Below, piece after piece: positions 7,931 through 64,000 of a stretch of DNA of 64,000 nt. The notes under the pieces were generated by a model. It was not told the origin of the DNA, did not search any database, and worked only from the letters and a program-made list of their open reading frames with translations. Source of the stretch: Psococerastis gibbosa (Eukaryota; Arthropoda; Insecta; Psocodea; Psocidae); assembly GCA_963971405.1 (NCBI GenBank), contig OZ020491.1:1680910-1744909 (forward strand). The letters are read 5' to 3'. Every line of letters starts with the position of its first letter. Position 1 is the stretch's first letter. The translations under genes were made by a program, and so were the position numbers.

Positions 7931-8167
7931 ATTAAAAAGTTTTTTATTTAATTAAGGTGCAGTCAGGCCTACATTTGAAAATTTTTGTATTAAATAGTTT
8001 TTTATGGAATGAAGGTCGGTAAGGCCTACAGAATCATGAAAATTTTTATATTAAAAAGTTTTTTATTTAATTAAGGACAGTGAGGCCTACATTTGAAAAA
8101 AAAAATTATATTAAAAGGTTTTTTATTTAATTAAGGTGCAGTAAGGCCTACATTTGAAATTTTATAT
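7931..8167. repeat. ~59-bp tandem array, four units
   Basis: Four head-to-tail units start near 7931, 7989, 8050 and 8110. Each begins ATTAAAAAG/ATAG, goes through a T-run and TTTAATTAAGG, and contains AGGCCTACA. The array abuts the 5' truncation point of the LINE, so it is either the target sequence or a rearranged junction. Confidence 0.8.
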
Positions 8168-27859: not shown

Positions 27860-28039
27860 TTATGGCATTTTAGTGACAATCCATGGTAATCTGCCCGATT
27901 TTTTGAAGTTCCAGTAGTCGTAGAGGAGTTTTCCAAGGACCAGCACGATGAGACAGGCCAATATGCCACTGACTATGTCCAGGGGATTTACCCACGACTC
28001 GGGATCGTAGCATATCGAATTTCTCGCTAGCTCCATGAT
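27860..28039 (-). CDS. LRR receptor gene, last exon: membrane helix and tail
   Basis: The 3' splice site TTTTGTTCAG precedes ATC ATG GAG, and the frame (phase 0) continues from the exon at 34673. It encodes 59 residues and a TAA stop. A short juxtamembrane part with one Cys and PESW leads to a hydrophobic helix (IVSGILACLIVLVLGKLLY). A basic tail follows, ending SGRLPWIVTKMP. The tail is about 15-20 residues, with no TIR domain, so this is not a Toll receptor although the ectodomain plan is similar. A gypsy element starts 85 bp upstream of this exon in gene direction. Confidence 0.85.
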   Translation of the reverse strand: MMELARNSICYDPESWVNPLDIVSGILACLIVLVLGKLLYDYWNFKKSGRLPWIVTKMP

Positions 28040-28124
28040 CTGAACAAAATAAACAATAAAAAATGATGTTAAAAAGTTCAAAGTTTTGCACTGTTCCCTA
28101 GCCATAATTTTGCAGGAGAGATTC

Positions 28125-28280
28125 TGTAATAGAAAGTTGGCATGGCAACGATATGCGCAAGTAGTCGTCGCGGCGTGGGCATTTTGGATGCATTGAGAAT
28201 GTCGATTTCAAGAATTAAATAAAGACTCTTTTAAATGAATACTTGTTATTATTGTGTAAAGGAACATGTAAATCATGACA
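28125..28280 (+). repeat. 5' LTR of the gypsy element
   Basis: Begins TGTAATAG and ends CATGACA, so it has TG...CA termini. It is identical to the 3' LTR except for an A/C difference in the AATTAAATxAAGAC stretch. At 156 bp it is short for a gypsy LTR. Confidence 0.95.
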
Positions 28281-28293
28281 TGGTGTCAGAAGT
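28281..28293 (+). promoter_or_regulatory. Primer binding site, tRNA-Leu type
   Basis: TGGTGTCAGAAGT follows the 5' LTR directly. From memory, its complement matches the 3' end of many leucine tRNAs (…ACACCA). It primes minus-strand DNA synthesis in elements of this type. Confidence 0.7.
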
Positions 28294-28311
28294 TTAACTA
28301 GCAACAGCAAG

Positions 28312-30564
28312 ATGTCTTTTAAGCCGCCTGTGGCAATTGATTTTGCCGGTGGGAGCAGCCTGGATCTGGACACGCAATGGCGGAAGTTCAAGATGAGCTT
28401 GGAAGTTTATTTTGAAGCCTCAGAATTGGTCAAAGCTTCAGACAAAAGGAAAGTAAATATCCTGCTCAATCTATTGGGGACGGAAGGTCAAGATCTATTT
28501 CAATCCTTCAATTTTGCAAGTGATAAGGAAAAATATGAATTTGACACAGTTGTGCTAAAATTTGATGCGCACTTTCTTAAAACAAAAAACATTGTGTATG
28601 AACGTTATAAATTATTTTCAAGGAAACAAAAAGATGATGAAAGTTTCGAAAAATTCTATATTGAAATAAGGAAATTGGTAAAAAATTGTGAATTGGGCAC
28701 TCTCGAAGATGAACTAATACTGTGTGTTCTCATAATGGGGCTGAATGACCAACAAATAAGGGAGACATTACTTCGTAAACCAAATTTGAAATTACGTGAA
28801 GCCATGGATTACGTTAAGGCGGTAGAAGCAGGGCGTTACCAGGCTTCATCAATGGCTAACCCCTCAGTACTGCGGGTTGAAGAAATTCCTCCGATACAGA
28901 ATCGGGCAATAAAGAGCTGTAAATTCTGCGCCGGATCTCATCCTCTCAGGAAGTGCCCAGCATACGGGAAATCGTGTTTTTTGTGCTCAGGGCTAAACCA
29001 TTTCTCCTCATGTTGTCCTAAGAAGCAGAAGCGAGTAACAGAACGACGCAAAGCTAACGAGTTGGTAGTGACCACAAGCGACAGCGAAGTTAATGACTGT
29101 GAGTTAATTAATGATATTGGTACTATTTTCGTACATGAAACAAAAGAAACTTGTAAGGGTTCAGGCAGTTGCAAGTCAGTTTGGTACAGGAATGTTGTAA
29201 TACAGGGCAGATTAGTACGAATGAAACTTGATACAGGAAGTCAAGTAAATATTTTACCCTTAAAAATATTTCGTCAGATAAACAAAAACACTGATCTGAA
29301 GCCAACTAATGTAGTTTTGGTTGCCTTTGGAAATTTTAAAGTTCGTGCATTAGGTACTCAATCACTGCTCTGCCGCAAATCAGATGATGACGCATACACC
29401 AGGCATATATTTCATATTGTTGATTTTGACACTGAGCCGCTGTTGGGTCTTGAATCATGCTCATCGTTAAATTTCATCAAACTAGTTGATCATATTAATA
29501 CATCAGACCTGCCATTGCCTGCATCCATTGCACAATACGAAGATGTGTTTAAAGGTATAGGTTGTTACCCTGGGACGCACAAAATTAAGTTGGATCAAAA
29601 TATTACACCGAAAATTTGTCCCGCGAGAAGAGTACCAGTACTACTCAAAGATAGGCTTAAGGCCACCTTAAATGAACTTGAACAAAATAAAATTATTTGT
29701 AAAATTGAGAAACCTACACAGTGGTTAAGTCCGTTGGTTATTGTAGAAAAGAAAAACGGTGCATTGCGTCTTTGCATAGACCCAAAGCAACTGAATAAGG
29801 CTATACGTAGGGAGCATTTTCAGACACCTACAATAGATGAAATAATTCCACAAATGCATGGGAAAACCCTATTTTCCGTCATAGACATGAAGGACGGATT
29901 TTTTCATATTAAGTTAGATAATGAGAGTTCTGATTTATGTGCCTTTGGGACTCCATTTGGTCGTTACAAATTCCTTCGAATGCCCAATGGCATATCAAGC
30001 GCACCCGAGGTATTTATGAGAAAAAATTATGAAATTTTTGGGAACATTGAAGGGACTACCATATATTATGATGATCTAATTATTTCTGGGGAAAATGAAG
30101 AAGATCATGATATTAAGTTTAGACAAGTAATGGAAATGGCCAAGAAATATAATGTGAAGTTCAATAGAAATAAGTTAAAGTATAAGATGACAGAAGTACG
30201 CTATTTGGGTCATATTTTTTCAAATGACGGACTTAAGGTGGACCCAGAGCGCACCCAGGCAATTGTTAATTTCACAGAACCAAGCGGAAAAGAGGATCTG
30301 AAAAGGTTCCTTGGAATGATAGCATACATAGGCAGATTCGTACCTAACTTGTCTAAAAAAACGCAAATACTAAGAGATCTTTTAAAAAAAGAATCTGTTT
30401 GGGTTTGGGACGCTAACCATTCAAGGGCATTTTGTGATTTAAAAGATTCGATTGTAAAGGCAACCATCCTGAGTTATTTTGATCCTAAAAAAAATGTAGT
30501 CATCCAATGTGACTCGAGCAAGAATGGTTTAGGAGCATCATTGCCAGTAGATTTTTGCCAGTAG
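28312..30564 (+). CDS. gypsy Gag-protease-reverse transcriptase (frame 1)
   Basis: A 750-codon frame starting at the ATG at 28312. The Gag part (about residues 1-190) is followed by two zinc knuckles near residues 203-230 (CxxCxxxHxxxxC and CxxCxxxxHxxxxC), then an aspartic protease with LDTGSQVN near residue 307. The reverse transcriptase has IDMKDGFFHIKL, FGRYKFLRMPNGISSAP and the catalytic YYDD near residue 583. The RNase H begins (QCDSSKNGLGAS) and the frame stops soon after. Gag and Pol share one frame, without the usual frameshift. The stop is due to a length change in the T run at 30552-30556. Confidence 0.92.
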   Translation: MSFKPPVAIDFAGGSSLDLDTQWRKFKMSLEVYFEASELVKASDKRKVNILLNLLGTEGQDLFQSFNFASDKEKYEFDTVVLKFDAHFLKTKNIVYERYKLFSRKQKDDESFEKFYIEIRKLVKNCELGTLEDELILCVLIMGLNDQQIRETLLRKPNLKLREAMDYVKAVEAGRYQASSMANPSVLRVEEIPPIQNRAIKSCKFCAGSHPLRKCPAYGKSCFLCSGLNHFSSCCPKKQKRVTERRKANELVVTTSDSEVNDCELINDIGTIFVHETKETCKGSGSCKSVWYRNVVIQGRLVRMKLDTGSQVNILPLKIFRQINKNTDLKPTNVVLVAFGNFKVRALGTQSLLCRKSDDDAYTRHIFHIVDFDTEPLLGLESCSSLNFIKLVDHINTSDLPLPASIAQYEDVFKGIGCYPGTHKIKLDQNITPKICPARRVPVLLKDRLKATLNELEQNKIICKIEKPTQWLSPLVIVEKKNGALRLCIDPKQLNKAIRREHFQTPTIDEIIPQMHGKTLFSVIDMKDGFFHIKLDNESSDLCAFGTPFGRYKFLRMPNGISSAPEVFMRKNYEIFGNIEGTTIYYDDLIISGENEEDHDIKFRQVMEMAKKYNVKFNRNKLKYKMTEVRYLGHIFSNDGLKVDPERTQAIVNFTEPSGKEDLKRFLGMIAYIGRFVPNLSKKTQILRDLLKKESVWVWDANHSRAFCDLKDSIVKATILSYFDPKKNVVIQCDSSKNGLGASLPVDFCQ

Positions 30565-32134
30565 ATCATTAACGAAGTGTGAGGAGGGGTACGCCCAAAT
30601 TGAAAAGGAACTACTGGCGATTGTTTTTGCAACTGAGCGTTTTCACTATTACATTTACGGTAAAGACGGAGTCGAAGTACATTCGGATCATCGACCTTTA
30701 GTTTCCATCGTGAATAATAAGTTAATTTCTGAATCAACATCGCGTATACAGAGAATGCTGATGAAACTCCTTAAATATTCCCTTCAAATTGTTTACGTAC
30801 CGGGAAAACAATTACACGTTGCAGATCCTCTGTCTAGGGCAGCACCACCATGTTTACCAGGGGAACACACAGAATTAGAGTATTTTGTCCATTTAGCCTC
30901 AAAATACCTCTCTGTGTCAGAGGAAAGGAGGCAACAAATGGTCGAAGAAACTGCTAAAGATCCTATCTTGAGCAAAGTCATTGCACTACATAACACTGGC
31001 TGGCCAAGCCATCATAGTCAAGTATCCGTGTCTTGTCGAGTTTATTTTAAACTTCAAACTGACCTGTCTGTTCACGATGGACTGCTATTTCACAAAGATG
31101 CTGTGGTCGTACCTAATGTACTTCGAAAAGAAATGCTGAATATAATTCACAAAAGTCACCAGGGCATCGAAAAATCAAAAGCATTGGCTAGGCACACTTT
31201 GTTTTGGCCTACAATGAACTCGGAAATACAACAAAAAGTAGAAAACTGTGTGACGTGCCAAACATTCGCTAATAAAAATGTAAGTGAACCACTGTTGCCA
31301 CATGTAATTCCTGACAGACCGTGGCAAAACATTTGTGCAGATATTGCTGAATTTGACAATAAGTCATTTTTAATTGTTAAAGACTACTATTCTAAGTGGA
31401 TTGAGTGTATTAGTTTGCATGGGAAAACGGCCGGGCATGTTATTAAAACACTGAAAGCAATATATGCAACCCATGGTATACCAGAGATTCTCATATGCGA
31501 TAATATGCCGTTCAACAGTGAAGAATTTGTACAATTTGCTCGTTCCTACGACTTTACAGTTAAGTTTTCCAGTCCCCGATATCCACAATCAAATGGTATG
31601 GCAGAGTCTGGAGTAAAACAGATAAAGGCAATGCTTAAAAAATGTAAAGAGGATGGTTCTGATTTTCTCCTCGCACTGCTGGAGTTTAGAAACACCCCCA
31701 TCACTGGCTCCTCTTTCTCTCCAGCACAATTATTATATAATCGCAGACTTAAGACTTGTGTTCCGACTGCTAATACTCTGTTAATGCCTAAGCTTAATGA
31801 CAGAGTCAGGGAAAACTTAACTAAAATTCAAAACAACCAAAAACGTTTTTTTGACAGGGGAACGAGGACCTTACCTTTGTTGCGTAGGGGCGATAGTGTG
31901 ATGGTAAGAAACGGTGAAAAATGGGAAAAGGGAAAAGTTGAAGAAGTTCTTAAGAGTTACCCTAGATCATTTCTAGTTAGGGTAGGCCCTGCCGTTTATC
32001 GGCGAAATAGAAAAGATTTGCGATATTTTAAAAACAATTGTAATGTGAATGATAATGTTTATGTCAATCCGGAAATCAATAACAGGCCGAAGAGGCATGT
32101 AAACCCCCCAGTTCGGTTCAAAGATTTTGTTTAA
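30551..32134 (+). CDS. gypsy RNase H end and integrase (frame 2)
   Basis: This frame is open from 30551, though its first ATG is at 30710. It starts inside the RNase H (ASRSLTKCEEGYAQIEKELL, then HSDHRPL) and continues through PLSRA. The integrase follows with its zinc finger (HKSHQG...CVTCQ) and the D-D-E core: D in ADIAEF, D in CDNMPF and E in GMAESGV. A basic C-terminal domain ends at 32134. In other Ty3/gypsy elements this is fused to the preceding frame, so here it is separated by the RNase H lesion and probably not made. Confidence 0.9.
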   Translation: MFASRSLTKCEEGYAQIEKELLAIVFATERFHYYIYGKDGVEVHSDHRPLVSIVNNKLISESTSRIQRMLMKLLKYSLQIVYVPGKQLHVADPLSRAAPPCLPGEHTELEYFVHLASKYLSVSEERRQQMVEETAKDPILSKVIALHNTGWPSHHSQVSVSCRVYFKLQTDLSVHDGLLFHKDAVVVPNVLRKEMLNIIHKSHQGIEKSKALARHTLFWPTMNSEIQQKVENCVTCQTFANKNVSEPLLPHVIPDRPWQNICADIAEFDNKSFLIVKDYYSKWIECISLHGKTAGHVIKTLKAIYATHGIPEILICDNMPFNSEEFVQFARSYDFTVKFSSPRYPQSNGMAESGVKQIKAMLKKCKEDGSDFLLALLEFRNTPITGSSFSPAQLLYNRRLKTCVPTANTLLMPKLNDRVRENLTKIQNNQKRFFDRGTRTLPLLRRGDSVMVRNGEKWEKGKVEEVLKSYPRSFLVRVGPAVYRRNRKDLRYFKNNCNVNDNVYVNPEINNRPKRHVNPPVRFKDFV

Positions 32135-45980: not shown

Positions 45981-46012
45981 CAATCATTGAAGCCACCAAA
46001 AACAATAATTAC

Positions 46013-46503
46013 CTGCAAGGAATATTTTAGAAGCCATCGGCAGTCTGAAAATCAGCAAATCATCCAAATCATGCAGCTGATTCCGCGAGAGATCCAAATA
46101 CTTCAAATGATGCAAATTCAAAAAAGTAGTCACACCGACAAATTCTAACGGAAGATCCGTCAGCGATAAAGCCTCCAAATTTGACTTGGGGAAATCGCTG
46201 ACGATATCTGACAAATTTCCACCTCTAATCGAAAACTTTTGAAGTTTTCGGAATGCTGGTAAAAGTTCTTGGGGCGAAAAGGTCGCATCTGACCACAGGC
46301 AGATTATGAGAGTTTTTGCGCGGTAATGTTCCCTGTGGCTATGGTGGGTTAGTCCGTTTTTGCACACAATTTTTTCGGCGTGCAATTTGGTTTCACATTT
46401 AGGTCCAGCCACGGTCTCCTCGCAGATCTTGAATGGTTTGGAGGTGATCTCGTCGTGTGATAGGACTCTGCTGGTTAAGACAGTGGTTGCTAGGAGCCAT
46501 GCT
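46013..46503 (-). CDS. LRR receptor gene, first mapped exon: signal end, LRRs
   Basis: Acceptor TTTTGTTTCAG at 46504, donor GCAG/GTAATTATTG at 46013. It encodes 163 full codons. It opens with AWLLATTVLTSRVLS, which looks like the back half of a signal peptide whose start is on an unmapped upstream exon. Paired cysteines follow (KICEE, GPKC, EKIVCKNGL), then LRRs (LQKFSIRGG, LEALSLTDL, LKYLDLSRNQL, SKIFLAG). With the five later exons the product has at least 449 residues: LRR-LRRCT-LRRNT-LRR-LRRCT-TM-short tail. This resembles arthropod LRR membrane proteins such as halfway or singed wings 2; the assignment is from memory and tentative. The in-frame codon usually taken as start (46410-46412) is GTG. 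Confidence 0.85.
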
Positions 46504-46544
46504 CTGAAACAAAATATGAAAGAATAAAAATCCGTGCTGCAAGA

Positions 46545-46660
46545 AAAACGGTCATTACGCTTTACGGCTACGGCTTTACAAGCCCTCCGAAGCTTGGCCA
46601 GAAAGTGTAGCCAGTGTGGGACTCGAACGAAAACGAACGAACGAACGAACGAACGAAAAC
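46545..46660 (-). mobile_element. SINE fragment with (CGAA)n
   Basis: CTTTACAAGCCCTCCGAAGC and TGTAGCCAGTGTGGGACTCG on plus are the inverted SINE body and head, ending in a CGAA microsatellite (46628-46662). Confidence 0.65.
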
Positions 46661-47120
46661 GACTCGAATATCCAATGAAATTTCTTAACCTTGATTGTTT
46701 TCACTTCATTTTATCAGGACTACTGGAATACAGGAAGACTGCTAAGCACCACCATGTTCCAATACATGTTGACTGCTGTTGTCCAGTATTCGTTTTTGAG
46801 GAATTTCAAGCTATCTTACTCGAGCTTGCGAGTATTGTTAACAAATAATGCGGAACATAAACGAGGTCCACAAGCTTCGCCACTTACACAACCTGCTGAT
46901 CCGTCAACACGGGTCGATAGTATTAGATTTAAGACGGGATTAGCCGAGATGTATCAACTAAAAACTCGATTATTGCCCATAAACAAAACAAGTTTAGATG
47001 ACATTGTCACAAGCTTGCTGTCAAAACTTCTTATAAGGATAAATGGACCCACCTGCCAAGCCCAGTAATTAGCTGGGGCCGTAGCACTAGCAGAATTAAT
47101 AAATATAAGTATTTAATATT

Positions 47121-52600: not shown

Positions 52601-52667
52601 GACCTCATATAGTTTCTGATTTTGTAGAAAGCCCTATTAGGATATTTTATCCATTGCTTGTACTAGT

Positions 52668-53240
52668 CATTGGCGTAAATAGGGGGTCCTGGGGGGGGGG
52701 GGGCTTCACGTCCACCCGTAGCCCCCCCCCAGGATTTCTGGTGGCAAAGACGTTATGGAGGCTAAAGGTAATATAATAATAAAAATAGTATCCACAATAA
52801 CGAAAGGGAAATTAATAATTAATATGCTTATTATTTTACATAAAATCTACATATTGACCAAGTACTTTCACAACAAATATATTACTCAAAACGCTTAAAA
52901 CCCCAATACTTCAGAGCTATTTTTACCAATTTTTTCTCCGGGGGAGACCCTTGGGCCCCCCTCAATAGTAGTTTATTCGTCGTTATAATAGCTCAATTGT
53001 TAAAATCTCAACTGTACTGCATGCAAAATGCGTAAAACCTCCCTAATTTGGTCATATTCATCAATTTTTTCCTCCGGGGGAGACCCCCGGGCCCCCCTTT
53101 CTCCAGCATAGAATATTAGTCAAACCTCACTAATTTGGGCCCAATTATCATTTTTTTCTCCGGGGGGGGGGGACCCCGGGCTCCCCTTTCTGCAAGGGGT
53201 CCTAAAGCCCCCCCAGAAATTTTGGGAATTTACGCCAATG
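52668..53240. mobile_element. hAT-like element with CATTGGCGTAAAT ends, copy 1
   Basis: Perfect 13-bp inverted ends (CATTGGCGTAAAT and ATTTACGCCAATG). The interior has G/C runs and repeated CTCCGGGGGAGACCC blocks and resembles 61636-62251. A target duplication is not evident here, so age or end position is less certain. Confidence 0.7.
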
Positions 53241-53787: not shown

Positions 53788-54009
53788 TCAGCAAGAGCAC
53801 TTCATCACATAAGTATAAATTATAGTCATTAAACCACTAATCCATCCAGTCAAGAGCGTATCTTCGATTACTGTTTGGAACATGGGCAAATCCTCGACGT
53901 AGCTGACCGTGACCCCCGTGAGCACGCCTATGGCAGCACCCATTGAAAAGCCATCAGTGGCGGCTTTCAACAATTGGTCTTTGCAATAGTTTGACAGAAT
54001 TGAGCACAT
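53788..54009 (-). CDS. Small glycine-zipper membrane protein 1
   Basis: Intronless, 73 residues from ATG at 54009 (the upstream codon read as a start is GTG). The N-terminus is MCSILSNYCKDQLLKAATDG, then a hydrophobic helix with FSMGAAIGVLTGVTV (G-x3-G-x3-G spacing), a short polar loop with DLPMFQ, a second helix around GWISGLMTIIYTYV, and the end KCSC. It aligns with the neighbour at 55829 over its whole length (YCK, TAKDG/AATDG, GxxxGxxxGxT). The layout of two short helices bracketed by cysteines recalls Romo1/Mgr2 or Tim17-like mitochondrial proteins, but the sequence is not close. Function unknown. Confidence 0.7.
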   Translation of the reverse strand: MCSILSNYCKDQLLKAATDGFSMGAAIGVLTGVTVSYVEDLPMFQTVIEDTLLTGWISGLMTIIYTYVMKCSC

Positions 54010-54069
54010 TTTCACTTGGAAATTTAGTAATCAGTTACAATCAAAACAAACTGCGTGTTTGGATGCTGT

Positions 54070-54075
54070 CTTATA
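54070..54075 (-). promoter_or_regulatory. Possible TATA box for the gene at 53788
   Basis: TATAAG on minus, 61-66 bp before the ATG. GCAGTTTG about 25 bp downstream could be an initiator. Weak, since the region is AT-rich. Confidence 0.3.
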
Positions 54076-54490
54076 CTGTAAATATTTGGTAATTTATGTT
54101 GATTATACGAAAAGAGAATGTTTTTCACTGGAACCCCTTCCATTTTTTTTCAAAATTAAATTAAAAGAAAATGTGGACTTTGATTTCGTGCGGAGCCTTC
54201 AAATCAATGATAATAAATTAGAAGAAATGTTCCCCTACCGATGGAAGGCTTGCGAAATGCGTACATTTTCAGTAGGTATTTTCCGATAGTTTTTCATATT
54301 CTCCATTACTGTATTTAAGTAATCGATGATAAGCCAACGGCTACAGCAAGTTGAATCCACAAGAATAGAGCCTGTTCAAAACTGCATCAAACTTAGTATT
54401 GTGCACAGCGTTGACAGGGGAACATGGTGGAACATAGATAAATCCGTGTATTTATCAAAAAAATATGTGAACAAAAAATTACAATGCAGA

Positions 54491-55186
54491 AGCGTCACTG
54501 GAGGTGAGAAATTCTAGAATTCAGAAATAATGGCAGGGCCCGCAATGCAATTGAGCGTGTGTTTTCTACCATTTTTTCAACAAAAAAACTTTTACACAAA
54601 ACCAAATAGTTTTTTGGGAAAGCAACCTGTCCGGTTTTGTTACTCAATTTCATACCTAAAACATGCCTGAAGGTGGAAATCATGGATAGAAAGGTTTCAC
54701 AGAAAAATTATTTTTTTGTCATTTTTCTTTAAAATTTAGTTATTGTTATTTTTTTTATCCCCAGAAGCAAACTATCAAGGGGCAAGTGACCCCCCGTATT
54801 TTGTCAACATTAATAACGACTACAATATATGTGAATTTAAAAGAAATCGTTGAAGCCGTTTTCGAGAAATAATTTTTTTAGACGTTTTTTATGAGTTTTT
54901 TGAAAATAAAACCCCCCAAAATTGAGTTGGCCCAAAATAAAAAAAACAACTCGAGGCATGATTTTTGTGAACCTACATGCCGAATTTCATCAAAATCGGC
55001 CGAGTATTGTGTCCGGAAATCGATGAACAGACAGACAGAACGACAGACAGACAGACAGACATTTCGTAAAAACCACGTTTTTGGGTTCCTGGGACCTGAA
55101 AACGTGTAAATCCGTTGAAATCTCGGAATCGAACATTTCGACCACCACAAAGCTTTCCTTATACTACGTATAAATTGGAAAGCAAA
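54491..55186 (+). mobile_element. ~850-bp dispersed repeat, copy 5, 5'-truncated
   Basis: Begins inside the element at GCGTCACTGGAGGTGAG and keeps the rest to TATAAATTGGAAAGCA. It lies between the first two small glycine-zipper genes. Confidence 0.8.
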
Positions 55187-55283
55187 AATATCCGGACACA
55201 CTGTATGTAAGCATAGGGTTAAACTTCCAATTTATGTTTCTATCGTTGATATTAATAAACAACTTTAATAGCTCCTGCCTTGT

Positions 55284-55519
55284 TTAGGCGGCTAATATCT
55301 CTGTCAATAATCCGTCATTATTGCATTAAAAATTGATGAGTAGATTGTTATTAGGAGACTATTATGTAAATACTTCACATGTCTATTATAAATTAAGTTA
55401 TAATATGGTAGAGACATCAATAATAAATCATACCATATTATAACTCTCCTTAAAACAAACATCTCATCAATTTTTAATGCACAAATGACGGATTATTGAC
55501 AGATGGAGTAGCCGCCTTA
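55284..55519. mobile_element. Foldback MITE (TAAGGCGGC family)
   Basis: Left TTAGGCGGCTAATATCTCTG, right GGAGTAGCCGCCTTA. The arms repeat TCAATAATCCGTCATT and ATTAAAAATTGATGAG in inverse order. Between small glycine-zipper genes 1 and 2. Confidence 0.8.
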
Positions 55520-55828
55520 CCAAATAGGCTATTGCTATTAGGAACCCCTCTCGCTATGTTTGGGGAAAACCTCGGTAAAGTGCACTCCGGCCGCAATTAA
55601 TGTTTTCCCTATTCCGATGTATAAGGAGTAGTATGCAGTATCTGCTAAATTCTACTTTCATTAGATTTACCAACACTGGCTGGAGTGAAGTCTGAAAGAA
55701 AACAAAAAACGACTGAGCAATATTACAATATTGCAAGACAGTTCTCCGCACTTTAATTAATATTATGTCCAGTTCTCCAGCAGTTTTGGCAGTTGCTTAC
55801 CACTTCTGATGGCCTGGGCAACGTTTAT

Positions 55829-56059
55829 TCAATGCATACAGTTATGGAGAGCAGCGTAAGCAGCGGCGGTAAAACTGCTTACAATTCCGCAAGTGAGTCC
55901 AGTGTCCAGCACGTTCTTCAGCAGTTCCGGTACCTGCATACCGTTGCTGACTGCCATCGTCAGGCCACAAATAGATCCCAGCAGGGAGCCCACAACCCAT
56001 CCATCTTTTGCAGTTTCTACTAAACTCTCCTTGCAGTAGGCGTCAAAAACTAAAGACAT
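55829..56059 (-). CDS. Small glycine-zipper membrane protein 2
   Basis: Intronless, 76 residues from the ATG at 56059 (a preceding TTG is not the start). MSLVFDAYCKESLVETAKDG leads into WVVGSLLGSICGLTM (G-x3-G-x3-G), a polar loop with QVPELLKN, and a second helix GLTCGIVSSFTAAAYAAL ending in NCMH. The N-terminal YCK, the KDG before helix 1 and a Cys three residues from the end are shared with the 53788 and 57299 genes. AATAAA overlaps the stop codon region (tgAATAAAc). The plus frame over it is a shadow. Confidence 0.7.
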   Translation of the reverse strand: MSLVFDAYCKESLVETAKDGWVVGSLLGSICGLTMAVSNGMQVPELLKNVLDTGLTCGIVSSFTAAAYAALHNCMH

Positions 56060-57298
56060 TTTCAATAAAAATGCGTAACTAATTTCTTACAATTTTGTAA
56101 ATAAACATGTCTATGAAAACAAACAAATTTTGAGATTAATTTTTCTGCTTTCTGCATATAGCTACTTTGGAAGAAAAAGGACCCAACTATAAATCTACAA
56201 TATCAATTTACAGAAATTGAAGTTAAAGTTTTTTTTAATGATGAATTACCTGACAGTTCCCGCCCAATACAACTGCCCTCGCGTGCAAAGTACTATAACT
56301 TACACACTACATTAACGCTGTTTTTCTAGCAAAATACTGATTTTATTTTTATATTTTAGCATTCTTATAAGTCGAAATCGACAGTTTTTGAGTTATTCTT
56401 TTTTCTTCCGAAGTAGTTGTCAAGTCAAGACCTGTCAAAAACTTGCAATGGCAAGATTAAGTCAGTACCAAAAGGTTACCGGCTGCCGCAACACCTCGTT
56501 TTATATTTCCTTTACAAATTCTTATAAATCTTTTGTCCCGCGCCTGTGTGTTTGTGCCCTGCCTGTGAAATACACGGATGCTCGTCTTCGTCCAGGTCTA
56601 CAAGTTCTGGTGCACCGGACCTAGCTATTCTCACAGCAGGTAAGTCAACTCTCACCAGGCGCTCCCAGTCTATAATATGTCAGTCTCGACAGTAGTGATA
56701 CCTATAGCCGAGGAGTTTTATAATCAAAATAAAAAAGGTGATTATTTAACTTATTTTAGGGAGATTTGACTAACTATTGAGAAGCCCAATGTTCGACTTC
56801 CGGAAAATTTCTTCATCCCTTTTCATTTTACCAGCGCCAGCACCTAAAACTATCTCCCGCGCAAAATGTTATATGTGCATGCAGTATGTATATCACGTTT
56901 TGAACGGGGGGTGAGTAAATAACAATCCAAGTCCCAATTTTGAGTGGGACGTTCATTAACTTACTTGTACTGTGCATACATACATATTATATTGAACAGG
57001 GGATTCTTTAACATGCGTGTACTGTACATACATACACATACATACTATATAATATTCAATAGGGGGTGATTTTAGGCTCAGGTGGTCATGAAATGATAGG
57101 TTGTGATGAAATTTTCCGAACATTGGTGGCCGTCTCAATAGGTAGATGAATTTCCCAAAAACTAATTATCCACCGGTAGCTAAGTAACATAACTCAAAAC
57201 AAGAAGTATTCCAGAATACGTCCAAACTTTATTTACTATTTTTAATTTGGCCAAACATCATCTAAATTGTCACGTATATTTTCTAGGACTAAAATTTT

Positions 57299-57505
57299 AT
57301 GAATTCTTACTGCCAATCGGAAGTTCTTCTGGCAGGCAAAGACGGGCTAAAAGTTGGCACAGTTCTTGGCGTTTTTATCGGAATCATAAGAAGTTTACAG
57401 ACAAATCAGCCCTTTGTGGAAACCATCATCTTCTACTGTATTGTGACGACTCTAGTGGTGTGCCTGATATTTTGCATTCATTCATACCTTACAACTTGCG
57501 AATAA
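57299..57505 (+). CDS. Small glycine-zipper membrane protein 3
   Basis: 68 residues, intronless as drawn. MNSYCQSEVLLAGKDGLKVG, then TVLGVFIGII (helix 1), a loop with NQPFVET, then a strongly hydrophobic helix with IVTTLVVCLIFCI ending in TTCE. Same YC...GKDGxxxGxxxGxxxG pattern as its neighbours, now on plus. A pyrimidine-rich stretch ending TTTCTAG lies about 16 bp upstream of the ATG, so an upstream exon is possible. The longer overlapping 92-codon frame (57247-57525) is a shadow. Confidence 0.68.
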   Translation: MNSYCQSEVLLAGKDGLKVGTVLGVFIGIIRSLQTNQPFVETIIFYCIVTTLVVCLIFCIHSYLTTCE

Positions 57506-57822
57506 CTATAACAGACCTAATATGAAAGAAGTTTTCGTCTGCCTCTTGTTTTTGATTATTTTCATTGTCATTTGCAACTTGACATTTAAAATGAAGCCTT
57601 GAAACCGATTTACTGTATGTAATTCAACATTAACACAAGCGGTGCAAAAAGTTAACTTATACCAGTTGAGAATTTGATTGAGTAACAATCGTTTGGTGAT
57701 TTTACATCCAAAAGGTTCACGCCATTTAAAACAAAACCAAAACAAAAGGTTTTAAATCATCAAGACTACTGTAATTACAAAACTCGGCATCGAGGTACCG
57801 TGCAAGAAATTTTTGACTCAAA

Positions 57823-58029
57823 ATGCAGGAAGGTTGCTTTTTAGGCATTTTATGTATGTTCCTGCTGTTTTGTGTGCTACAGTTTAAAGGCAACCTGGAC
57901 GAAACCTACTTATACACGGCCTGTTTCTTTATTTTCATAATTTTCTCAATTTTATTTACGTGCCAACACTATGTTACAGTGTGTTTCGATAATGACGGGG
58001 TGTTGCCGTTATGTCTCAAAGAATTATAA
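57823..58029 (+). pseudogene. Degraded member of the small-protein cluster
   Basis: A 68-codon frame (MQEGCFLGILCMFLLFCVL, then DETYLYTACFFIFIIFSILF, then CQHYVTVCFDN). Its second half lines up with the gene at 57299 (ET then a Cys-containing helix, then CxHYxTxC against IHSYLTTC). The first helix has lost the glycine zipper and the GKDG motif. Just upstream, in another frame, CKKFLTQNAGR resembles the family N-terminus, so a frameshift is likely. It could still be a functional two-helix protein. Confidence 0.45.
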
Positions 58030-58103
58030 TTTGACTTCGAAATTATCCATGTTATTTTGTGGTTATATTTTCTAGAATTAGGTTGAACCTAAATACATTC
58101 ATT

Positions 58104-58500
58104 TAAGAGTGTACAGCCCGTAGGAAATTGGTAGCTCGAAATTTAATACTTTTTATTTTTTATTTTATTAATTAAGCATGTTATTAAATATTTAGCTCAT
58201 CAAAGTTGTAGAAGACTACTTCATGCATCATATTATAAGATATTTTTAATTTTCGAAATTATAGTTTTTTCATAAACATGTGCAAATATTTTATAAACAA
58301 GAACTTTTCACGTACTATTGATTTTATAAAGAAACTACAATTTCGAAAACTAAAAATACCCTGTTATATGATGCATGAAGTAGTCTTCTACAACTTTGAT
58401 GAGCCAAATCTTTATAGGCTAATAACATGCTTAGTTAATTAAATAAAAAATAAAAAATATTAAATTTCGGGCTACCACTCCTACGGGCTGTACACTCTTA
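58104..58500. mobile_element. Long-armed foldback MITE
   Basis: Perfect 21-bp ends: TAAGAGTGTACAGCCCGTAG plus G, and the inverse. Arms extend about 170 bp (GCTCATCAAAGTTGTAGAAG and CTTCTACAACTTTGATGAGC). Flanking TA on both sides fits a TA target duplication. Between the degraded and fourth cluster genes. Confidence 0.9.
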
Positions 58501-58865
58501 TATAAGAGGAAATGGAAGGTAGATACTGTATATGTATATTTCTGCCTACCCGTAGATTACACCTAAACCATTGGTAAAGACTTTAATGGCAATGGTGTAA
58601 TGTTATTCAACAAAGGGTTAGTTGGAATTACATCGCCTGCTGTGTTAATAGTCATTAGAGACGTTTCTGGTGTGAAACTGATCCCGAAACGTCACCCCTG
58701 GCAGTGGGCTCTGCCCTAATTGTTCGATGACTGTAAGACCTGCTTCTAATGATTATTAATACACACAGACAATGTAAGTCCAACTAACCCTTTGTTAAAT
58801 CCCTAAATCTGTCAGATTTACTTATATTTAATTTAATAATGCAGATTATTGAAGTGAAAACAGAA

Positions 58866-59062
58866 CATATAGAGTAGTGGTACAGACTTTCACTCGAAAG
58901 GTTGTTGGTTCGAGTCCCACACTTGCTGCATTTTCTGGCCGTACTTTGGAGGGCATGTAAAGCAGGCGGTCCCGGGCCTTCCCATAGTTGAGTGTAAGAG
59001 AGGGCTTTATAGTCCTAAATCCGCTAGGTTGGCTTAGTAATAGAACAAAAAGTATCAATCTA
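58866..59062 (+). mobile_element. tRNA-derived SINE, full length
   Basis: TAGAGTAGTGGTACAGAC, GGTTGTTGGTTCGAGTCCC, then the body GGAGGGCATGTAAAGCAGGC and GGCTTAGTAATAGAACAAAA. It lies about 390 bp upstream of the small-protein gene at 59450. Confidence 0.88.
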
Positions 59063-59449
59063 TTTTATTTATTTATTTAAAACAAGAATTAGAGTATTTC
59101 ATTTGGTAGAGAACAGGACTCAGAAGGAGAGTCTGTGCTCGAAAATCAGCACAAGTGAACGAAAGTAAAAGATTTCCTACCTGTCTTCAGGCCTAGTATC
59201 TCATTGGGTTGTCACGGTCTTCTTATTTAAATTGGTTAAATTTTCTATGTAAAAGAGGCCCCTTTAAGATAAAATCTGCTGCCAATCAACACATTTTAAT
59301 GGCGGTCAACGCGGCAAAATCATAAGCCTGCATCAAAAACTTTATTCATTCCAATAACAACCTACTGCAAATCAACAACAATATTACCCTCAAAATTGTT
59401 GTTGACAATGTATTTATAAACTAAACTAAATTATTTCTTCAAAATTATC

Positions 59450-59731
59450 ATGACCAAGAACTGCACCAATGATAAAAACAAGACTAAATCAACTAGCAAT
59501 GCAGCCTGTTTCCAGTCGGTGGTAGAAGGAGGGAAAAACTATGGAGTAGTGGGTACCGCATTAGGTGGCGCGGTTGGTGTCACCAAGGGCGTGTTGGATT
59601 TCTTCAAGAGGAGTTCTATGTGCAGGAAGAGCATGTTCATGGGACAGGTTACTACCCACGGGCTCTTCGGAGGTGTGTTTGGAGCGTTCCTCGGAGCCGC
59701 TCTATCAGGCGTCGGGTCATGTTTCGACTAG
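59450..59731 (+). CDS. Small glycine-zipper membrane protein 4
   Basis: 93 residues, intronless. A polar N-terminus (MTKNCTNDKNKTKSTSNA) precedes ACFQSVVEGGKNYGVVGTAL. Helix 1 is VGTALGGAVGVTKGVL and the loop is basic (KRSSMCRKS). Helix 2, GLFGGVFGAFLGAALSGVG, has a second full glycine zipper, and the protein ends SCFD. It is the most Romo1-like member: CF near the start, glycine repeats in both helices, a basic loop and a terminal Cys. Helix 2 matches the orphan exon at 61325 (GLxGxxxGAxxG...CxD). The overlapping plus frames are shadows. Confidence 0.75.
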   Translation: MTKNCTNDKNKTKSTSNAACFQSVVEGGKNYGVVGTALGGAVGVTKGVLDFFKRSSMCRKSMFMGQVTTHGLFGGVFGAFLGAALSGVGSCFD

Positions 59732-59870
59732 GAAGCTTGACTGGAGCAAAATTGATCCCTAATTGTTTTGAAATACAGAAAATTGTCTGTGGGGCAAGGG
59801 GCATGTAATATTGTTTTTTCCCTTTTATACTTTTATACTTTATACTATTAGGAGGCCCAATATGAAATAT

Positions 59871-59876
59871 AATAAA
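59871..59876 (+). promoter_or_regulatory. Candidate poly(A) signal for gene at 59450
   Basis: AATAAA about 140 bp past the stop codon. Confidence 0.4.
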
Positions 59877-60098
59877 TATATTCTATAAGTGCGAATATAA
59901 GCATAGGCTTATGTAGGTTTATTGTTCTCTGTGTGAGTTACATATAGGTATCAGGAGCGCACTGGACAGCAAGGTTGCCCGTCTAAAACAGGTTGCCTTT
60001 GCCCATTTCCAATAGGGTGCGTGAGGCGTGTGAATGAGTATGGGATGTTTAGTTCAGGTCAGTGTGAAAGTGTGTGAAGGTGCTCCATGGGTTAGAAA

Positions 60099-60223
60099 AG
60101 TGGTCGGCAACCAATGGCTCGCGAGCCAAATTTGGCACTTTGGGCTCTCGGTAGTGGTGCTTCGGTAAAACTATTATTACGAAGGGGCTATCTTTTGTAT
60201 ATTTTGGACATGTTGCTGACCAC
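60099..60223. mobile_element. Possible hAT-like miniature element
   Basis: Starts GTGGTCGGCAACCAATGGC with the known hAT-like GGCTCGCGAGCC motif and ends GTTGCTGACCAC. The ends are inverted over 11 of 12 bases; no clear 8-bp duplication. Confidence 0.45.
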
Positions 60224-60663
60224 AACATTCCAAATAGAGCAGTGGTCATGAGAAAGTGTCCACTACCTGTATACTCAGGCCTAGACCCATTTTGGGTCGC
60301 CGTGTCACGGCGTTTTTTTCTATCTTTTGTACTTTTTTTTATCGTAACTGCATGACACACGTTTTGATTTCTGTTGGTTCTTGTTTACCACAAGACACAA
60401 GTCACAAGCATTCATCGCACTCTCAATTTGTGGTGAAAATCGTCGTTCTGCAATCGAGGCAGTGGCGGATCCACGGGGGGGGGGGGGGGTCAGGGGGAGG
60501 GGGTACTTGCAGCCGCCATTTCTTGGCTTGACACTAGATGGAATAGCTAGAGCATTCCAGACATGCGACATTTTACTATATACCATAGGATCGCAGCCCC
60601 CCCCCTAAATAAAAAATCCTGGTTACGGGTCTGCAGCACATTAGCACATACTGTGAATGTATC

Positions 60664-60864
60664 TTAAGCAGCTATTCCACTTGTCACTTGTCACTTTTCC
60701 CATTAAATGTGATAAAAAACAGTCTGCTACCATATTGTTACTTAATTTCTAGTAGATAAGTTAAGTATCTATATTACAGTCTCCTTAAATTAAGTTATAA
60801 TACGGTAGCGGACTCTTTTTAATCACATTTGACGGGAAAATCGACCAGTGGAATAGCCGCCTTA
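60664..60864. mobile_element. Foldback MITE (TAAGGCGGC family)
   Basis: Left TTAAGCAGCTATTCCACTTG, right CCAGTGGAATAGCCGCCTTA, with inner inverse blocks ATTAAATGTGAT and ATCACATTTGAC. Confidence 0.8.
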
Positions 60865-61324
60865 GCTCAGCTAGCTGAACTAAACCATATTTTTCTTCAT
60901 AATGGCATGACCAGGGGATTAAATAAATACCGGTATTATAATCGCATAATCGCTATGATCAAGCTGCTGTTGTGTAAGTAGGGGGGGGGGGGTTAAATGT
61001 TGGAGAAGAGGCCGGTGGCTCTTAGGAAGTGTATGATGTCATTTTTGGCTGTTTTGTTACAAATGAAATATACAGGGTACATTGTATTATAGTTATTCCA
61101 AAAATTGATGCACAGACCTGACTAAGGTAAAGGTTTAGTTATGCAGACTACAATTTGTAAGAAAACCCTTTTGGGGTTCCTGGGACCCCCACTGAAATCT
61201 CGGAAACTAATTCCGGCTCTCACGAAGCGTTCTTTAATAACGGGTGCGGATAACAAGCGGACGCGTTGCGGTACATATCGTTGTGCTTATATTGGTTAAT
61301 ATTTCCATTTTGTTTACTTCAAAG

Positions 61325-61438
61325 GTTTGTCCGGACGAGGTTCGGTAGTTGGCCATACCATTTCTAACGGGCTGCTCGGATGCATCGTTGGAGCTGTAGT
61401 CGGGGTGGTCAATGTATTTGTAATAACGTGCGATTGAA
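61325..61438 (+). pseudogene. Orphan second exon of a small glycine-zipper gene
   Basis: After the acceptor TGTTTACTTCAAAG the frame, entered in phase 1, reads LSGRGSVVGHTISNGLLG, then CIVGAVVGVVNVFVITCD and a stop. It aligns with helix 2 of the protein at 59450. The sequence before the acceptor matches that before the exon at 63994 for over 200 bp. No first exon was found between 59731 and this point; MITEs and other elements fill the gap, so it is probably decapitated. An unusual or distant first exon cannot be excluded. Confidence 0.6.
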
Positions 61439-61635
61439 GATAAGATGTCGTCAAAATGTCATGAAAATTATATAAAAAAACTACCGGATAACACCAACAA
61501 CCTTTTATTGGACTTCCATTGACTTTTTAAAAGGAGTAGGGAATGTCTTACATGTGCATGGTCATTAAAACCATTGGACAAATAGCGGAAGCAGAAGAAC
61601 GCTCGAACTTCAGGTGGCTGCAGGTCAATATTACC

Positions 61636-62251
61636 CATTGACGTAAATAGGGGGGTCCTGGGGGGCATAGCCCCCCACAGGTCCACCCGTAGCCCCCCTT
61701 TAAGCATTATGGAGGCTAGAGGCATGGTATCCACAATAACGAGAGGGAAATTAATTCTAAGCATGCTTATTTTCCATGAAAAAAAACAACATTTATTGAC
61801 CAAGTACTTTTACAAAAAATATATTACTCAAAATGTTTAAAACCCCAATACTTCAGAAGTATTTTTTTCCAACTTTTGCTCCGGGGGAGACCACCGCGCC
61901 CCCCTCAATGGTAAGTTTATTCGTTGTTATAATATCTCAATTTTGTACCGGCATACTGATTGCAAACATTTGTGTAAATAGGGGGGTCCTGGGCTAAGCC
62001 CTCCTCCCAGAAGCACCCGTAAAACCTCACTAATTTGGGCCTATTCAACAATTGCCGGTCCCATCTTTCCCCAGGGCATAATATTCGTAAAATCTCACTA
62101 ATTTGTGCCTATTTATCCCTTTCTCCAGGGTATAATGTGCGTAAAACCTCACTAATTTGGGCCCATTTATCAATTTCTTTCTCCGGGGATCAAAGTCTTG
62201 GGGTCCTAAAGCCCCCCCCCCCCCCAGAAATTTTGGTAATGTACGCCAATG
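61636..62251. mobile_element. hAT-like element with CATTGACGTAAAT ends, copy 2
   Basis: Ends CATTGACGTAAAT and ATGTACGCCAATG are inverted with two mismatches. The flanks ATATTACC (61628-61635 and 62252-62259) are a perfect 8-bp duplication. The interior repeats AAACCTCACTAATTTGGGCC several times. Related to 52668-53240. Confidence 0.92.
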
Positions 62252-62313
62252 ATATTACCAGACGGAAACGCGGCTGTGCTTCCACAAGCTTTGCTAATGC
62301 CAAGTTTAACCAC

Positions 62314-62714
62314 TAAGGCGCCTATTCCACAGACCGGCTAGGGCTAAATACAAATACGGTAACGTGGTAACAGACATTCAAGACTTAGGTGGGGTTTCCA
62401 TCAACCTCGCATTGCAGAATGCAAATGACATTGACGGAAATGTTTGTTTTTCTTTTTATAGAAATCTATTAAAATGTTTGTAATTAACATATCCCATGAC
62501 GCCATTTTTTCATTTTAGTTTATTTTTTTGTGATTTTACTCTATGATCATTGATCAATTTTAACTATGGCATAGAGTAAAACAAACATTTCCGTCAATCT
62601 CATTTGCATTCTGTAATGCGAGGTCGGTGGAAACCCGGCCTAAGTCTTGAATGTCTGCTACCACGTCACCGTATTTGTATTTAGCCTTAGCCGGTCGGTG
62701 GAATAAGCGCCTTA
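62314..62714. mobile_element. Foldback MITE (TAAGGCG family), best copy
   Basis: Left TAAGGCGCCTATTCCACAGA, right GGTGGAATAAGCGCCTTA. The arms carry TACGGTAACGTGGTAACAGA and AATGCAAATGACATTGACGG with their inverses. It ends about 145 bp upstream of the two-exon small-protein gene. Confidence 0.88.
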
Positions 62715-62859
62715 GCAACGCTACAACTCTACCTCATCAAAATTCAAAAAAAAAACAGAAACAATATTCTATTTGTGTTTCACTTTGGCATCAATGTTTA
62801 CCTAATAACAATTCCCAAATTTTCGGTTATTTTTCCAAATTCATCAGTCTTCCGCTATA

Positions 62860-62947
62860 ATGACCTGCCAAGATCGGATGTGCGAAGGCGGCAAGAAAGG
62901 CGGGCTCATAGGGACAGTAGTCGGAGGGGCGTATGGGTTAATAACAG
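62860..62947 (+). CDS. Small glycine-zipper protein 5, exon 1
   Basis: ATG at 62860 opens MTCQDRMCEGGKKGGLIGTV, then VGGAYGLITG, splitting a Gly codon at the donor ACAG/GTAAATAC. It matches the first helix of the protein at 59450 (GGKxxGxxGTxxGGAxG). With exon 2 at 63994 it would give a protein of about 65-70 residues. TCATCAGTCTTCC about 15 bp upstream resembles an arthropod initiator. The frame is too short to be found without the splice model. Confidence 0.65.
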
Positions 62948-63310
62948 GTAAATACTGGATAAAAGTCATAATTGTCTTCTATTGTACTTCTTGCTGTTGT
63001 TAAGCTTGGTGTGAGCCACATCTCATTTTGTTCTTGTCTCATCTCCGAATTTCATCAAAACATATAAATATACTGTTCATAGGCTAGTGACTTTTATTAT
63101 GAGTTGTGAAATTCTGGAAGAGGAAGATCAATCTTTAATGAATGGGTATCAAAATGCAATCGACTGAGTTACGAACTAAAGAACATAACCGAGGTTGCGA
63201 AATTTAAATTTGCCCTGACGAAGAAGATCAAAAAAAGTTAAGAAGATCAGAAGTTGATGAAGTTGCGGTCAACAAATTAGCACCTGCTCATGATCAACTA
63301 CAACAACAAC

Positions 63311-63743
63311 CAGGGCCGCAGCCTGGGGGGAGGGGGTGGCAGGGCTTAGCCCTCCAAATGTTCTGTCGTGTCCCCCAAAGATGGATTAAAGTAAAGTCCC
63401 GAACGGCATAACTATTTTTTCAGTTAATACCTATACCTACCTAGCCCGCTGTTAATTTGTTTTTAAAAAAATGAAGGGACAATTTTTGTTTAATTACAAA
63501 TAAAACTTATATTTAATTATTTTGTTGTTTTGAAAAGTGATAATTTGTGTTGAAATTCAAAACCATGCATAGGTACATAGTTAGATATTAATGGTGAGGC
63601 CTATCTCAGGTTTACCATGACATTAATGGCTTGGATTCACGTAGAATAGCTTAGTTCTGATTATGACAACCCAAAAAAACTAGCCTCCCTAAAAGGTTAC
63701 CCAGCCCAGCCCCCCTAATGCTTTTCTCAGCGCTTCGGCCCTG
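63311..63743. mobile_element. hAT-like element in the intron of small protein 5
   Basis: Left CAGGGCCGCAGC and right GCTTCGGCCCTG are inverted with one mismatch. The flanks ACAACAAC (63303-63310 and 63744-63751) are a perfect 8-bp duplication. A G-rich stretch follows the left end. Confidence 0.9.
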
Positions 63744-63993
63744 ACAACAACATATACATATTACCAAAAATCGATGCACGGATCAGACTTACACAGAGAC
63801 AGACAAACAATTCGCAACAAAAACATTTTTGCAATCCTGGGACCTCAAACCGTGTCAATCCGCTGAAATCTCGGAAAAAATTCGTCACGCAGGCCGAAGC
63901 GTTCCTTATATACGCAAGGGGACGCCTTGCAGTAATCATTGTGTTTAAGTGCTTATATTAGTTAATATATTCTCTGTTTTGTTTACTTTCAAG

Positions 63994-64000
63994 GTTTATC
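63994..64000 (+). CDS. Small glycine-zipper protein 5, exon 2, cut by window end
   Basis: The acceptor TTTACTTTCAAG precedes GTTTATC, which continues the phase-1 Gly codon and then Leu and the start of Ser. It is the same beginning as the exon at 61325 (G-L-S). The upstream 240 bp is a diverged duplicate of 61083-61324. The rest lies outside the window. Confidence 0.6.

What the first reader, a model, noticed from the sequence alone, without database searches (positions are those of the whole stretch)
53788..64000. Cluster of tiny glycine-zipper membrane proteins, apparently an undescribed family
At least five coding copies and two broken ones lie within about 10 kb on both strands. Each predicted protein is 68-93 residues with two short hydrophobic helices. 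The first helix follows a G(K/T)(D/N/K)xxxG-x3-G-x3-G pattern. A Cys sits within about 10-20 residues before it and another within the last four residues. Sequence outside these positions differs greatly, so the family seems to be diversifying fast in a local array. It fits no family I can name with confidence.
Basis: partly seen in the sequence, partly recalled or inferred. Interest (0 to 1): 0.9.

Follow-up and report, generated by a model that had tools for sequence, protein, structure and literature searches.

The report
Cluster of Romo1-like small membrane proteins
A 10-kb stretch of what reads as an animal genome holds an old cluster of tiny two-helix membrane protein genes, one of them split by an intron, that look like distant cousins of a mitochondrial protein-import subunit (Romo1/Mgr2) rather than a wholly new kind of protein.

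Summary
Four complete single-exon genes lie at 53788-54009(-), 55829-56059(-), 57299-57505(+) and 59450-59731(+), coding for 73, 76, 68 and 93 aa. A fifth gene at 62860(+) is not broken: a GT donor follows its exon 1, and exon 2 appears to begin at 63994, just before the window ends. An orphan exon 2 lies at 61325-61437. The family is real: in leave-one-out profile searches each left-out member is the best hit outside the profile. All five first halves share Cys, then Gly at +15, +19 and +23; the second halves end in Cys near the C-terminus. Third codon positions are saturated, so the copies are old; 'diversifying fast' is not shown. The layout matches Romo1/Mgr2, two-helix relatives of Tim17: same Cys-to-Gly spacing and Cys-Cys span, a predicted hairpin whose first structural matches are TIM23-core and plant complex I chains, and one member aligns to human ROMO1 beyond the Gly/Cys pattern. 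But Pfam Romo1 scores stay below cut-off, pattern-keeping decoys sometimes match too, and a profile test was negative. I call it 'built and probably working like Romo1/Mgr2, membership not established': a divergent local array in an unnamed animal.

The parts
53788..54009 (-). Gene A, single exon, 73 aa, complete (ATG to TGA)
   Evidence: left-out E 4e-9
55829..56059 (-). Gene B, single exon, 76 aa, complete
   Evidence: left-out E 2e-12; predicted two-helix hairpin, pLDDT 79
57299..57505 (+). Gene C, single exon, 68 aa, complete
   Evidence: left-out E 3e-11
59450..59731 (+). Gene D, single exon, 93 aa, complete; closest of the array to ROMO1
   Evidence: left-out E 3e-5; local alignment to ROMO1 reached by 4 of 500 decoys that keep Gly, Cys and hydropathy
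61325..61437 (+). F: orphan exon 2 (second helix and C-terminal Cys), phase 1, stop included; no exon 1 found upstream
   Evidence: E 0.014 to 0.19 in four of the five leave-one-out searches, not among the eight rows printed for the fifth (D left out)
62860..62947 (+). Gene E, exon 1 (Cys and glycine-zipper helix), ends in phase 1 at a GT donor
   Evidence: left-out E 6e-4
62948..63993 (+). Probable intron of gene E (GT...AG, about 1.05 kb); its 3' end is alike to the stretch before exon F
   Evidence: sequence; 71% identity over 154 alignment columns with the F flank, part of which is a dispersed repeat also seen at 55036-55128
63994..64000 (+). First bases of probable exon 2 of gene E, cut by the window end
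   Evidence: aligns with the first bases of exon F in the same phase; the rest is outside the window

Best explanation
An old local array of small nuclear genes in an animal genome, coding for Romo1/Mgr2-like proteins: two short helices that form a hairpin, a glycine zipper in helix 1, and one Cys at each end of the hairpin. The family itself, the intron-split member and the conserved Cys/Gly register are shown; the hairpin is predicted. Inferred, from Romo1/Mgr2 and Tim17: the proteins insert into the mitochondrial inner membrane; the two Cys, which lie level with each other on the same side, can be joined by a disulfide in the intermembrane space, as Cys10 and Cys77 are in yeast Tim17; the zipper face packs against another glycine-rich Tim17-type helix; and the hairpin caps the lateral cavity of a Tim17-type translocase, as Mgr2/ROMO1 is thought to do, so gating or tuning protein import in certain tissues. 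The most likely reason for several divergent copies is specialised (for example male-germline) versions beside a conserved housekeeping Romo1 elsewhere in the genome; that last step is by analogy only. Formal membership in PF10247 is not claimed.
For: Family is real: leave-one-out. Register: Gly at +7, +11, +15, +19, +23 from the first Cys in ROMO1 (recalled sequence, which scores 88.4 bits over the whole Pfam Romo1 model); the same +15, +19, +23 in 5 of 5 and +11 in 4 of 5; Cys-Cys span 64 in ROMO1 against 62-65 in A, B, C and the E+F composite, and 71 in D. Gene D aligns to ROMO1 over 70 residues including Cys, zipper and a GG-x-FG-x-F motif in helix 2; 0 of 500 full shuffles and 4 of 500 Gly/Cys/hydropathy-keeping shuffles reach it; the composite is reached by 22 of 500 of the latter. 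Pfam Romo1 is a sub-threshold hit for 3 of 5 sequences: A 14.2, B 16.2, E read through into its intron 17.7 bits. Model of B: helices 3-40 and 44-75, pLDDT 79; Foldseek's first three PDB rows are a chain of the yeast core TIM23 complex (8e1m_B) and chains of two plant I+III2 structures (8e73_AK, prob 0.99, TM 0.71; 8bef_Y); 8e1m_A is row 13. Both plant structures contain NDUFA11/B14.7 (PMC9873571 and PMC9873573, passages), a Tim17-family protein (PMC5072337, passages); that AK and Y are this subunit is recalled. Romo1/Mgr2 as two-helix Tim17-family members: PMC5072337 (passages). Tim17 Cys pair and ROMO1/Mgr2 sealing the Tim17 cavity: PMC11452300 (passages), PMC6340964 (passages).
Against: No member reaches the Pfam Romo1 cut-off of 27.6 bits; C, D, exon 1 alone and the E+F composite show no Romo1 row at all; for B another family (DUF2953) scores better. 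2 of 24 decoys that keep Gly/Cys also hit Romo1, one at E 0.0056, as good as the best real one. Pfam's alignments of A and E sit one zipper turn off the Cys register, B's is in register. Pairwise, A, B and C reach ROMO1 no better than 36, 54 and 105 of 500 pattern-keeping decoys, and against Mgr2 the counts are A 15, B 393, C 10, D 175, composite 141 of 500, so D, the best match to ROMO1, does not match Mgr2. A profile of the window family scores ROMO1 at only 6.6 bits, reached by 214 of 500 decoys, and Mgr2 at 8.2, reached by 16 of 500; hhalign against the ROMO1+Mgr2 pair aligns the zipper only, probability 12.8%, P 0.002. No Foldseek row has E <= 0.001, the solved Mgr2 chain 9j9b_D ranks only 37 with TM 0.33, and non-Tim17 hairpins follow from row 4. 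The profile finds no Tim17-family sequence in the PDB at E <= 10. No transcript, localisation or second genome is available here.
Confidence: 0.58

Rival explanations
1. A lineage-specific family of glycine-zipper, Cys-clamped hairpin proteins that is unrelated to Romo1/Tim17 and reached the same layout by convergence; it would self-assemble through its zipper in some other membrane.
For: Sub-threshold Pfam scores, decoy hits and a negative profile test against ROMO1; D does not match Mgr2 beyond its pattern; PMC5072337 itself reports that zipper motifs alone give false Tim17 matches (passages).
Against: Same Cys-to-Gly register and Cys-Cys span as ROMO1, D-ROMO1 alignment beyond the Gly/Cys pattern, Foldseek's first rows.
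Confidence: 0.28
2. Derivatives of another Tim17-superfamily protein (Tim17, Tim22, Tim23 or NDUFA11) that lost the last two helices.
For: Foldseek prefers TIM23-core and plant complex I chains over Mgr2; Tim17 has the same Cys-helix-helix-Cys layout.
Against: No member has a Pfam Tim17 row; the Cys register fits ROMO1.
Confidence: 0.07
3. Secreted or membrane-lytic defence peptides.
For: A peptide from helix 2 of human Romo1 kills bacteria (PMC7157825, passages; PMC8348110, passages); D has a weak bacteriocin IIc row at E 4.8.
Against: Only 2 to 19 residues precede the Cys before the zipper helix, so no separate signal peptide fits there (no signal-peptide predictor was run); pI 4.2-5.6 for A, B and C. 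Pattern scans with D found no relative by tblastn in viral or prokaryote contigs.
Confidence: 0.05
4. Chance ORFs or dead copies.
For: No transcript data; F lacks an exon 1.
Against: Leave-one-out matches at saturated synonymous divergence with frames still open; second codon positions 57% identical against 45% (sd 3) in class-shuffled, realigned controls.
Confidence: 0.02

Closest known systems
Romo1 (ROMO1) / Mgr2, Pfam PF10247
   Same: Two helices in about 70-80 residues, Gly at +15/+19/+23 after an N-terminal Cys (ROMO1), Cys at the extreme C-terminus (ROMO1), GG-x-FG-x-F in helix 2 of gene D.
   Different: Below the Pfam cut-off; A, B and C lack the helix 2 GG-x-FG-x-F motif; several divergent copies in one array, four without introns.
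Tim17/Tim22/Tim23 and NDUFA11 (Tim17 superfamily, PF02466)
   Same: Glycine-rich helices 1 and 2, and in Tim17 a Cys pair that ties helices 1 and 2; chains from complexes that contain such proteins head the fold search.
   Different: Basic architecture is four helices (PMC5072337, passages); no Pfam Tim17 row for any member.
Bacterial glycine-zipper domains (Rick_17kDa_Anti, Gly-zipper_YMGG)
   Same: Zipper motif; weak sub-threshold Pfam rows.
   Different: Mostly envelope proteins of bacteria, without a Cys pair of this kind (both recalled).

Membership tests
Romo1/Mgr2 (PF10247) | Pfam gathering score of 27.6 bits | tested here: not met
   14.2 (A), 16.2 (B), 17.7 (E read through); no row for C, D, exon 1 alone or the E+F composite
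Romo1/Mgr2 (PF10247) | Two membrane helices in a protein of about 80 residues | tested here: met
   Two hydrophobic stretches in A to D and the composite; AlphaFold hairpin for B, pLDDT 79; the D model also shows two helices but is low in confidence, 55
Romo1/Mgr2 (PF10247) | Zipper in helix 1 in fixed register to the preceding Cys (as in ROMO1) | tested here: met
   +15, +19, +23 in 5 of 5; ROMO1 letters recalled, checked by Pfam. In the alignment yeast Mgr2 has Asn in place of this Cys, so the Cys is not universal
Romo1/Mgr2 (PF10247) | Helix 2 motif with G-T-F-G-x-F-M-x-I-G (shared by ROMO1 and Mgr2) | tested here: inconclusive
   Present in part in D (GG-V-FG-A-F-L), weak in F, absent in A, B, C
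Romo1/Mgr2 (PF10247) | Sequence similarity beyond the glycine pattern | tested here: inconclusive
   D against ROMO1: 4 of 500 decoys reach it, against Mgr2 175 of 500; family profile: 214 of 500 for ROMO1, 16 of 500 for Mgr2
Romo1/Mgr2 (PF10247) | Mitochondrial inner membrane, bound to TIM23 | not testable with these tools
   needs an experiment
Tim17/Tim22/Tim23 (PF02466) | Pfam Tim17 match | tested here: not met
   no row for any member
Tim17/Tim22/Tim23 (PF02466) | Four helices | tested here: not met
   two helices in the models of B and D; lengths of 66-93 residues with two hydrophobic stretches

The most novel reading that the evidence does not exclude
An undescribed, long-lived, lineage-restricted family of mitochondrial microproteins derived from Romo1, kept as a local array of divergent versions, each a tissue- or sex-specific lid for a Tim17-type import channel.
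Probability: 0.3. Interest if true: 0.62.

Novelty: new variant of a known kind. Interest (0 to 1): 0.42.

Why it matters
If these are Romo1-derived, an import-channel subunit usually treated as a single conserved gene (recalled) has been multiplied and reshaped in an animal lineage. The array would then give natural variants for asking which parts of Romo1/Mgr2 matter for gating, redox sensing and binding to Tim17. If they are not, it is a new microprotein family with a strict Cys/Gly code that genome annotation is likely to miss because of its size.

Tried and rejected
Own genome: none is held for the window, so no search for a housekeeping Romo1 or further copies was possible. Rfam: no match at gathering scores; no tRNA. 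PDB by sequence: no plausible relative for D (two LolC rows, E 0.5), for the A1 profile (two unrelated rows, E 0.1 and 2) or for B (no row). NCBIfam and PHROGs: only weak, scattered rows. Scans of viral and prokaryote contigs with gene D: 20 and 270 pattern hits, none a relative by tblastn at E <= 1e-3. The D model was too poor (pLDDT 55), so it was not sent to fold search.

Rejected: reading exon 1 of E through the GT donor as a complete 47-aa protein, because exon F fits as the missing half in the same phase and the E+F composite aligns to D over 72 columns (tblastn E 3e-8 with filters and composition correction off, so a liberal value). A 68-aa ORF at 57823-58029 downstream of C as a sixth member: E 9.4 and 1.7 in the search with D left out. 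Note: its first profile held the F exon in a wrong frame; onwards used the right frame, and no claim on the family rests. Codon-position constraint: only position 2 exceeds realigned controls, positions 1 and 3 do not, so I claim no more than conserved hydropathy plus Gly/Cys. Of 40 decoys made (of A, B, E) were scanned; the 16 of C and D were not.

Papers: ROMO1 with paralog and insect gave two papers, seen in listings only. ROMO1, gene duplication, arthropod, testis, gene family expansion at two terms gave 9,437 papers, 20 listed, none of those 20 with ROMO1. ROMO1 with Drosophila gave 69 papers, 12 listed, none with an insect Romo1 family by its title. Further searches. I found no report of such an array in those listings; that is no proof that none is in print.
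Full report
What is there. The window reads as animal nuclear DNA: a LINE-type frame with endonuclease and reverse transcriptase domains, LTR-retrotransposon frames with reverse transcriptase, RNase H and integrase domains (gag only weakly), and a leucine-rich-repeat frame. No call names the organism, and no genome is held; 'animal' is my reading of these elements and of the split gene. In 53788-64000 I find four complete single-exon genes, A (-), B (-), C (+) and D (+), of 73, 76, 68 and 93 aa with ATG starts. The copy at 62860 (E) is an exon: after 88 coding bases a GT donor follows, and the last seven bases of the window repeat the start of a second exon in the same phase. The second half of such a gene, F, stands alone at 61325-61437; its left flank is 71% identical over 154 alignment columns to the 3' part of the probable intron of E. 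Part of that flank is a dispersed repeat that also lies at 55036-55128, but the likeness runs on into the exon, so E and F are probably the younger duplicates. No exon 1 for F and no further copy showed up in tblastn of the window.

Is it more than chance? Profiles built from the other four sequences find each left-out member as the best hit outside the profile in the window's six frames (E 4e-9, 2e-12, 3e-11, 3e-5 and 6e-4). When Gly, Cys and hydropathy are kept and the rest shuffled, 0 of 500 decoys reach the real score for A, B, C and D (for D the best decoy has 28.8 against 28.9 bits); for the E+F composite 23 of 500 do. The copies are old: codon positions 1, 2, 3 are 39, 57 and 26% identical, with 25% expected at position 3, and four-fold sites agree in 25 of 101 comparisons. 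Because protein alignment itself favours positions 1 and 2, I realigned codon-shuffled controls: position 2 stays high (0.57 against 0.45, sd 0.03, in 60 class-shuffled sets, and 0.46, maximum 0.56, in 60 plainly shuffled sets), positions 1 and 3 do not differ. So conserved hydropathy, Gly and Cys are real, but fast diversification by selection is not shown.

What it looks like. All five first halves have a Cys, then Gly at +15, +19, +23 (and +11 in four); A to D and exon F end with a Cys at or within two residues of the C-terminus. The AlphaFold model of B is a two-helix hairpin, helices 3-40 and 44-75, pLDDT 79; in the numbering of that model Cys10 and Cys75 lie about 30 residues from the turn on either side, so level with each other. 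Foldseek against the PDB has no row with E <= 0.001, but its first three rows are a chain of the yeast core TIM23 complex and chains of two plant I+III2 supercomplexes, the second with probability 0.99 and TM 0.71. Both supercomplexes contain the Tim17-family subunit NDUFA11/B14.7; that the chains AK and Y are this subunit is my recollection.

The closest family. D aligns to ROMO1 over 70 residues, with 4 of 500 pattern-keeping decoys reaching the score; for A, B, C and the composite the counts are 36, 54, 105 and 22 of 500. Against yeast Mgr2 they are A 15, B 393, C 10, D 175, composite 141 of 500. Against the reading: no Pfam score passes the cut-off, 2 of 24 decoys also hit the Romo1 model, the family profile does not single out ROMO1 (214 of 500 decoys score as high) and only mildly Mgr2 (16 of 500), and the solved Mgr2 chain is only row 37 of the fold search. 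The authors of the Tim17 family study masked zippers for the same reason (PMC5072337, passages). I therefore do not file the proteins in PF10247; I say that they are built like it and probably work like it.

How it probably works. In yeast Tim17 a disulfide between Cys10 and Cys77 faces the intermembrane space (PMC6340964, passages), and the human counterpart links helices 1 and 2 (PMC11452300, passages). Mgr2 closes the lateral cavity of Tim17, and models place ROMO1 alike (same paper); ROMO1 is needed to recruit TIM21 and for import of YME1L (PMC6363466, passages). By analogy the window proteins would be redox-clamped hairpins that pack by their zipper against a Tim17-type partner. Many newly duplicated nuclear genes for mitochondrial proteins in Drosophila are testis-biased (PMC8950493, abstract), which makes a specialised role plausible but untested here. 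Four members lack the intron of E and F, which suggests an intronless ancestor (retrocopy or intron loss) that then duplicated locally; this is inference.

Verdict. A real, old gene family with a strict Cys/Gly code, one spliced gene and one orphan exon; most likely a divergent Romo1-like array. Not categorically new, but none of its members passes a curated cut-off in Pfam or NCBIfam, and PHROGs gives only weak rows.

Noticed in passing
5290-7947 (-): Long open frame with endonuclease and reverse transcriptase domains (LINE-type retroelement).
   Followed up: partly
28279-32131 (+): LTR-retrotransposon in two overlapping frames, with reverse transcriptase, RNase H and integrase domains and a weak gag row.
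   Followed up: partly
45987-46700 (-): Frame with leucine-rich repeats, probably an exon of a larger gene.
   Followed up: no
52661-53240 and 61629-62251: Two stretches alike in the same order, about 9 kb apart (most matched pieces 77-94% identical), lie on either side of A to D and F; they could promote unequal exchange.
   Followed up: no
62313-62715, 58129-58477, 55280-55523: Inverted repeats with arms of 58-141 nt, 84-93% complementary, MITE-like, between the genes.
   Followed up: no
57823-58029 (+): 68-aa frame with two hydrophobic stretches and Cys just downstream of gene C; scores only E 9.4 and 1.7 (D left out) with family profiles.
   Followed up: partly
27863-28207 (-): 115-aa frame with an N-terminal membrane-anchor look, reminiscent of a cytochrome P450 start (recalled); no Pfam row at E <= 1.
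   Followed up: no
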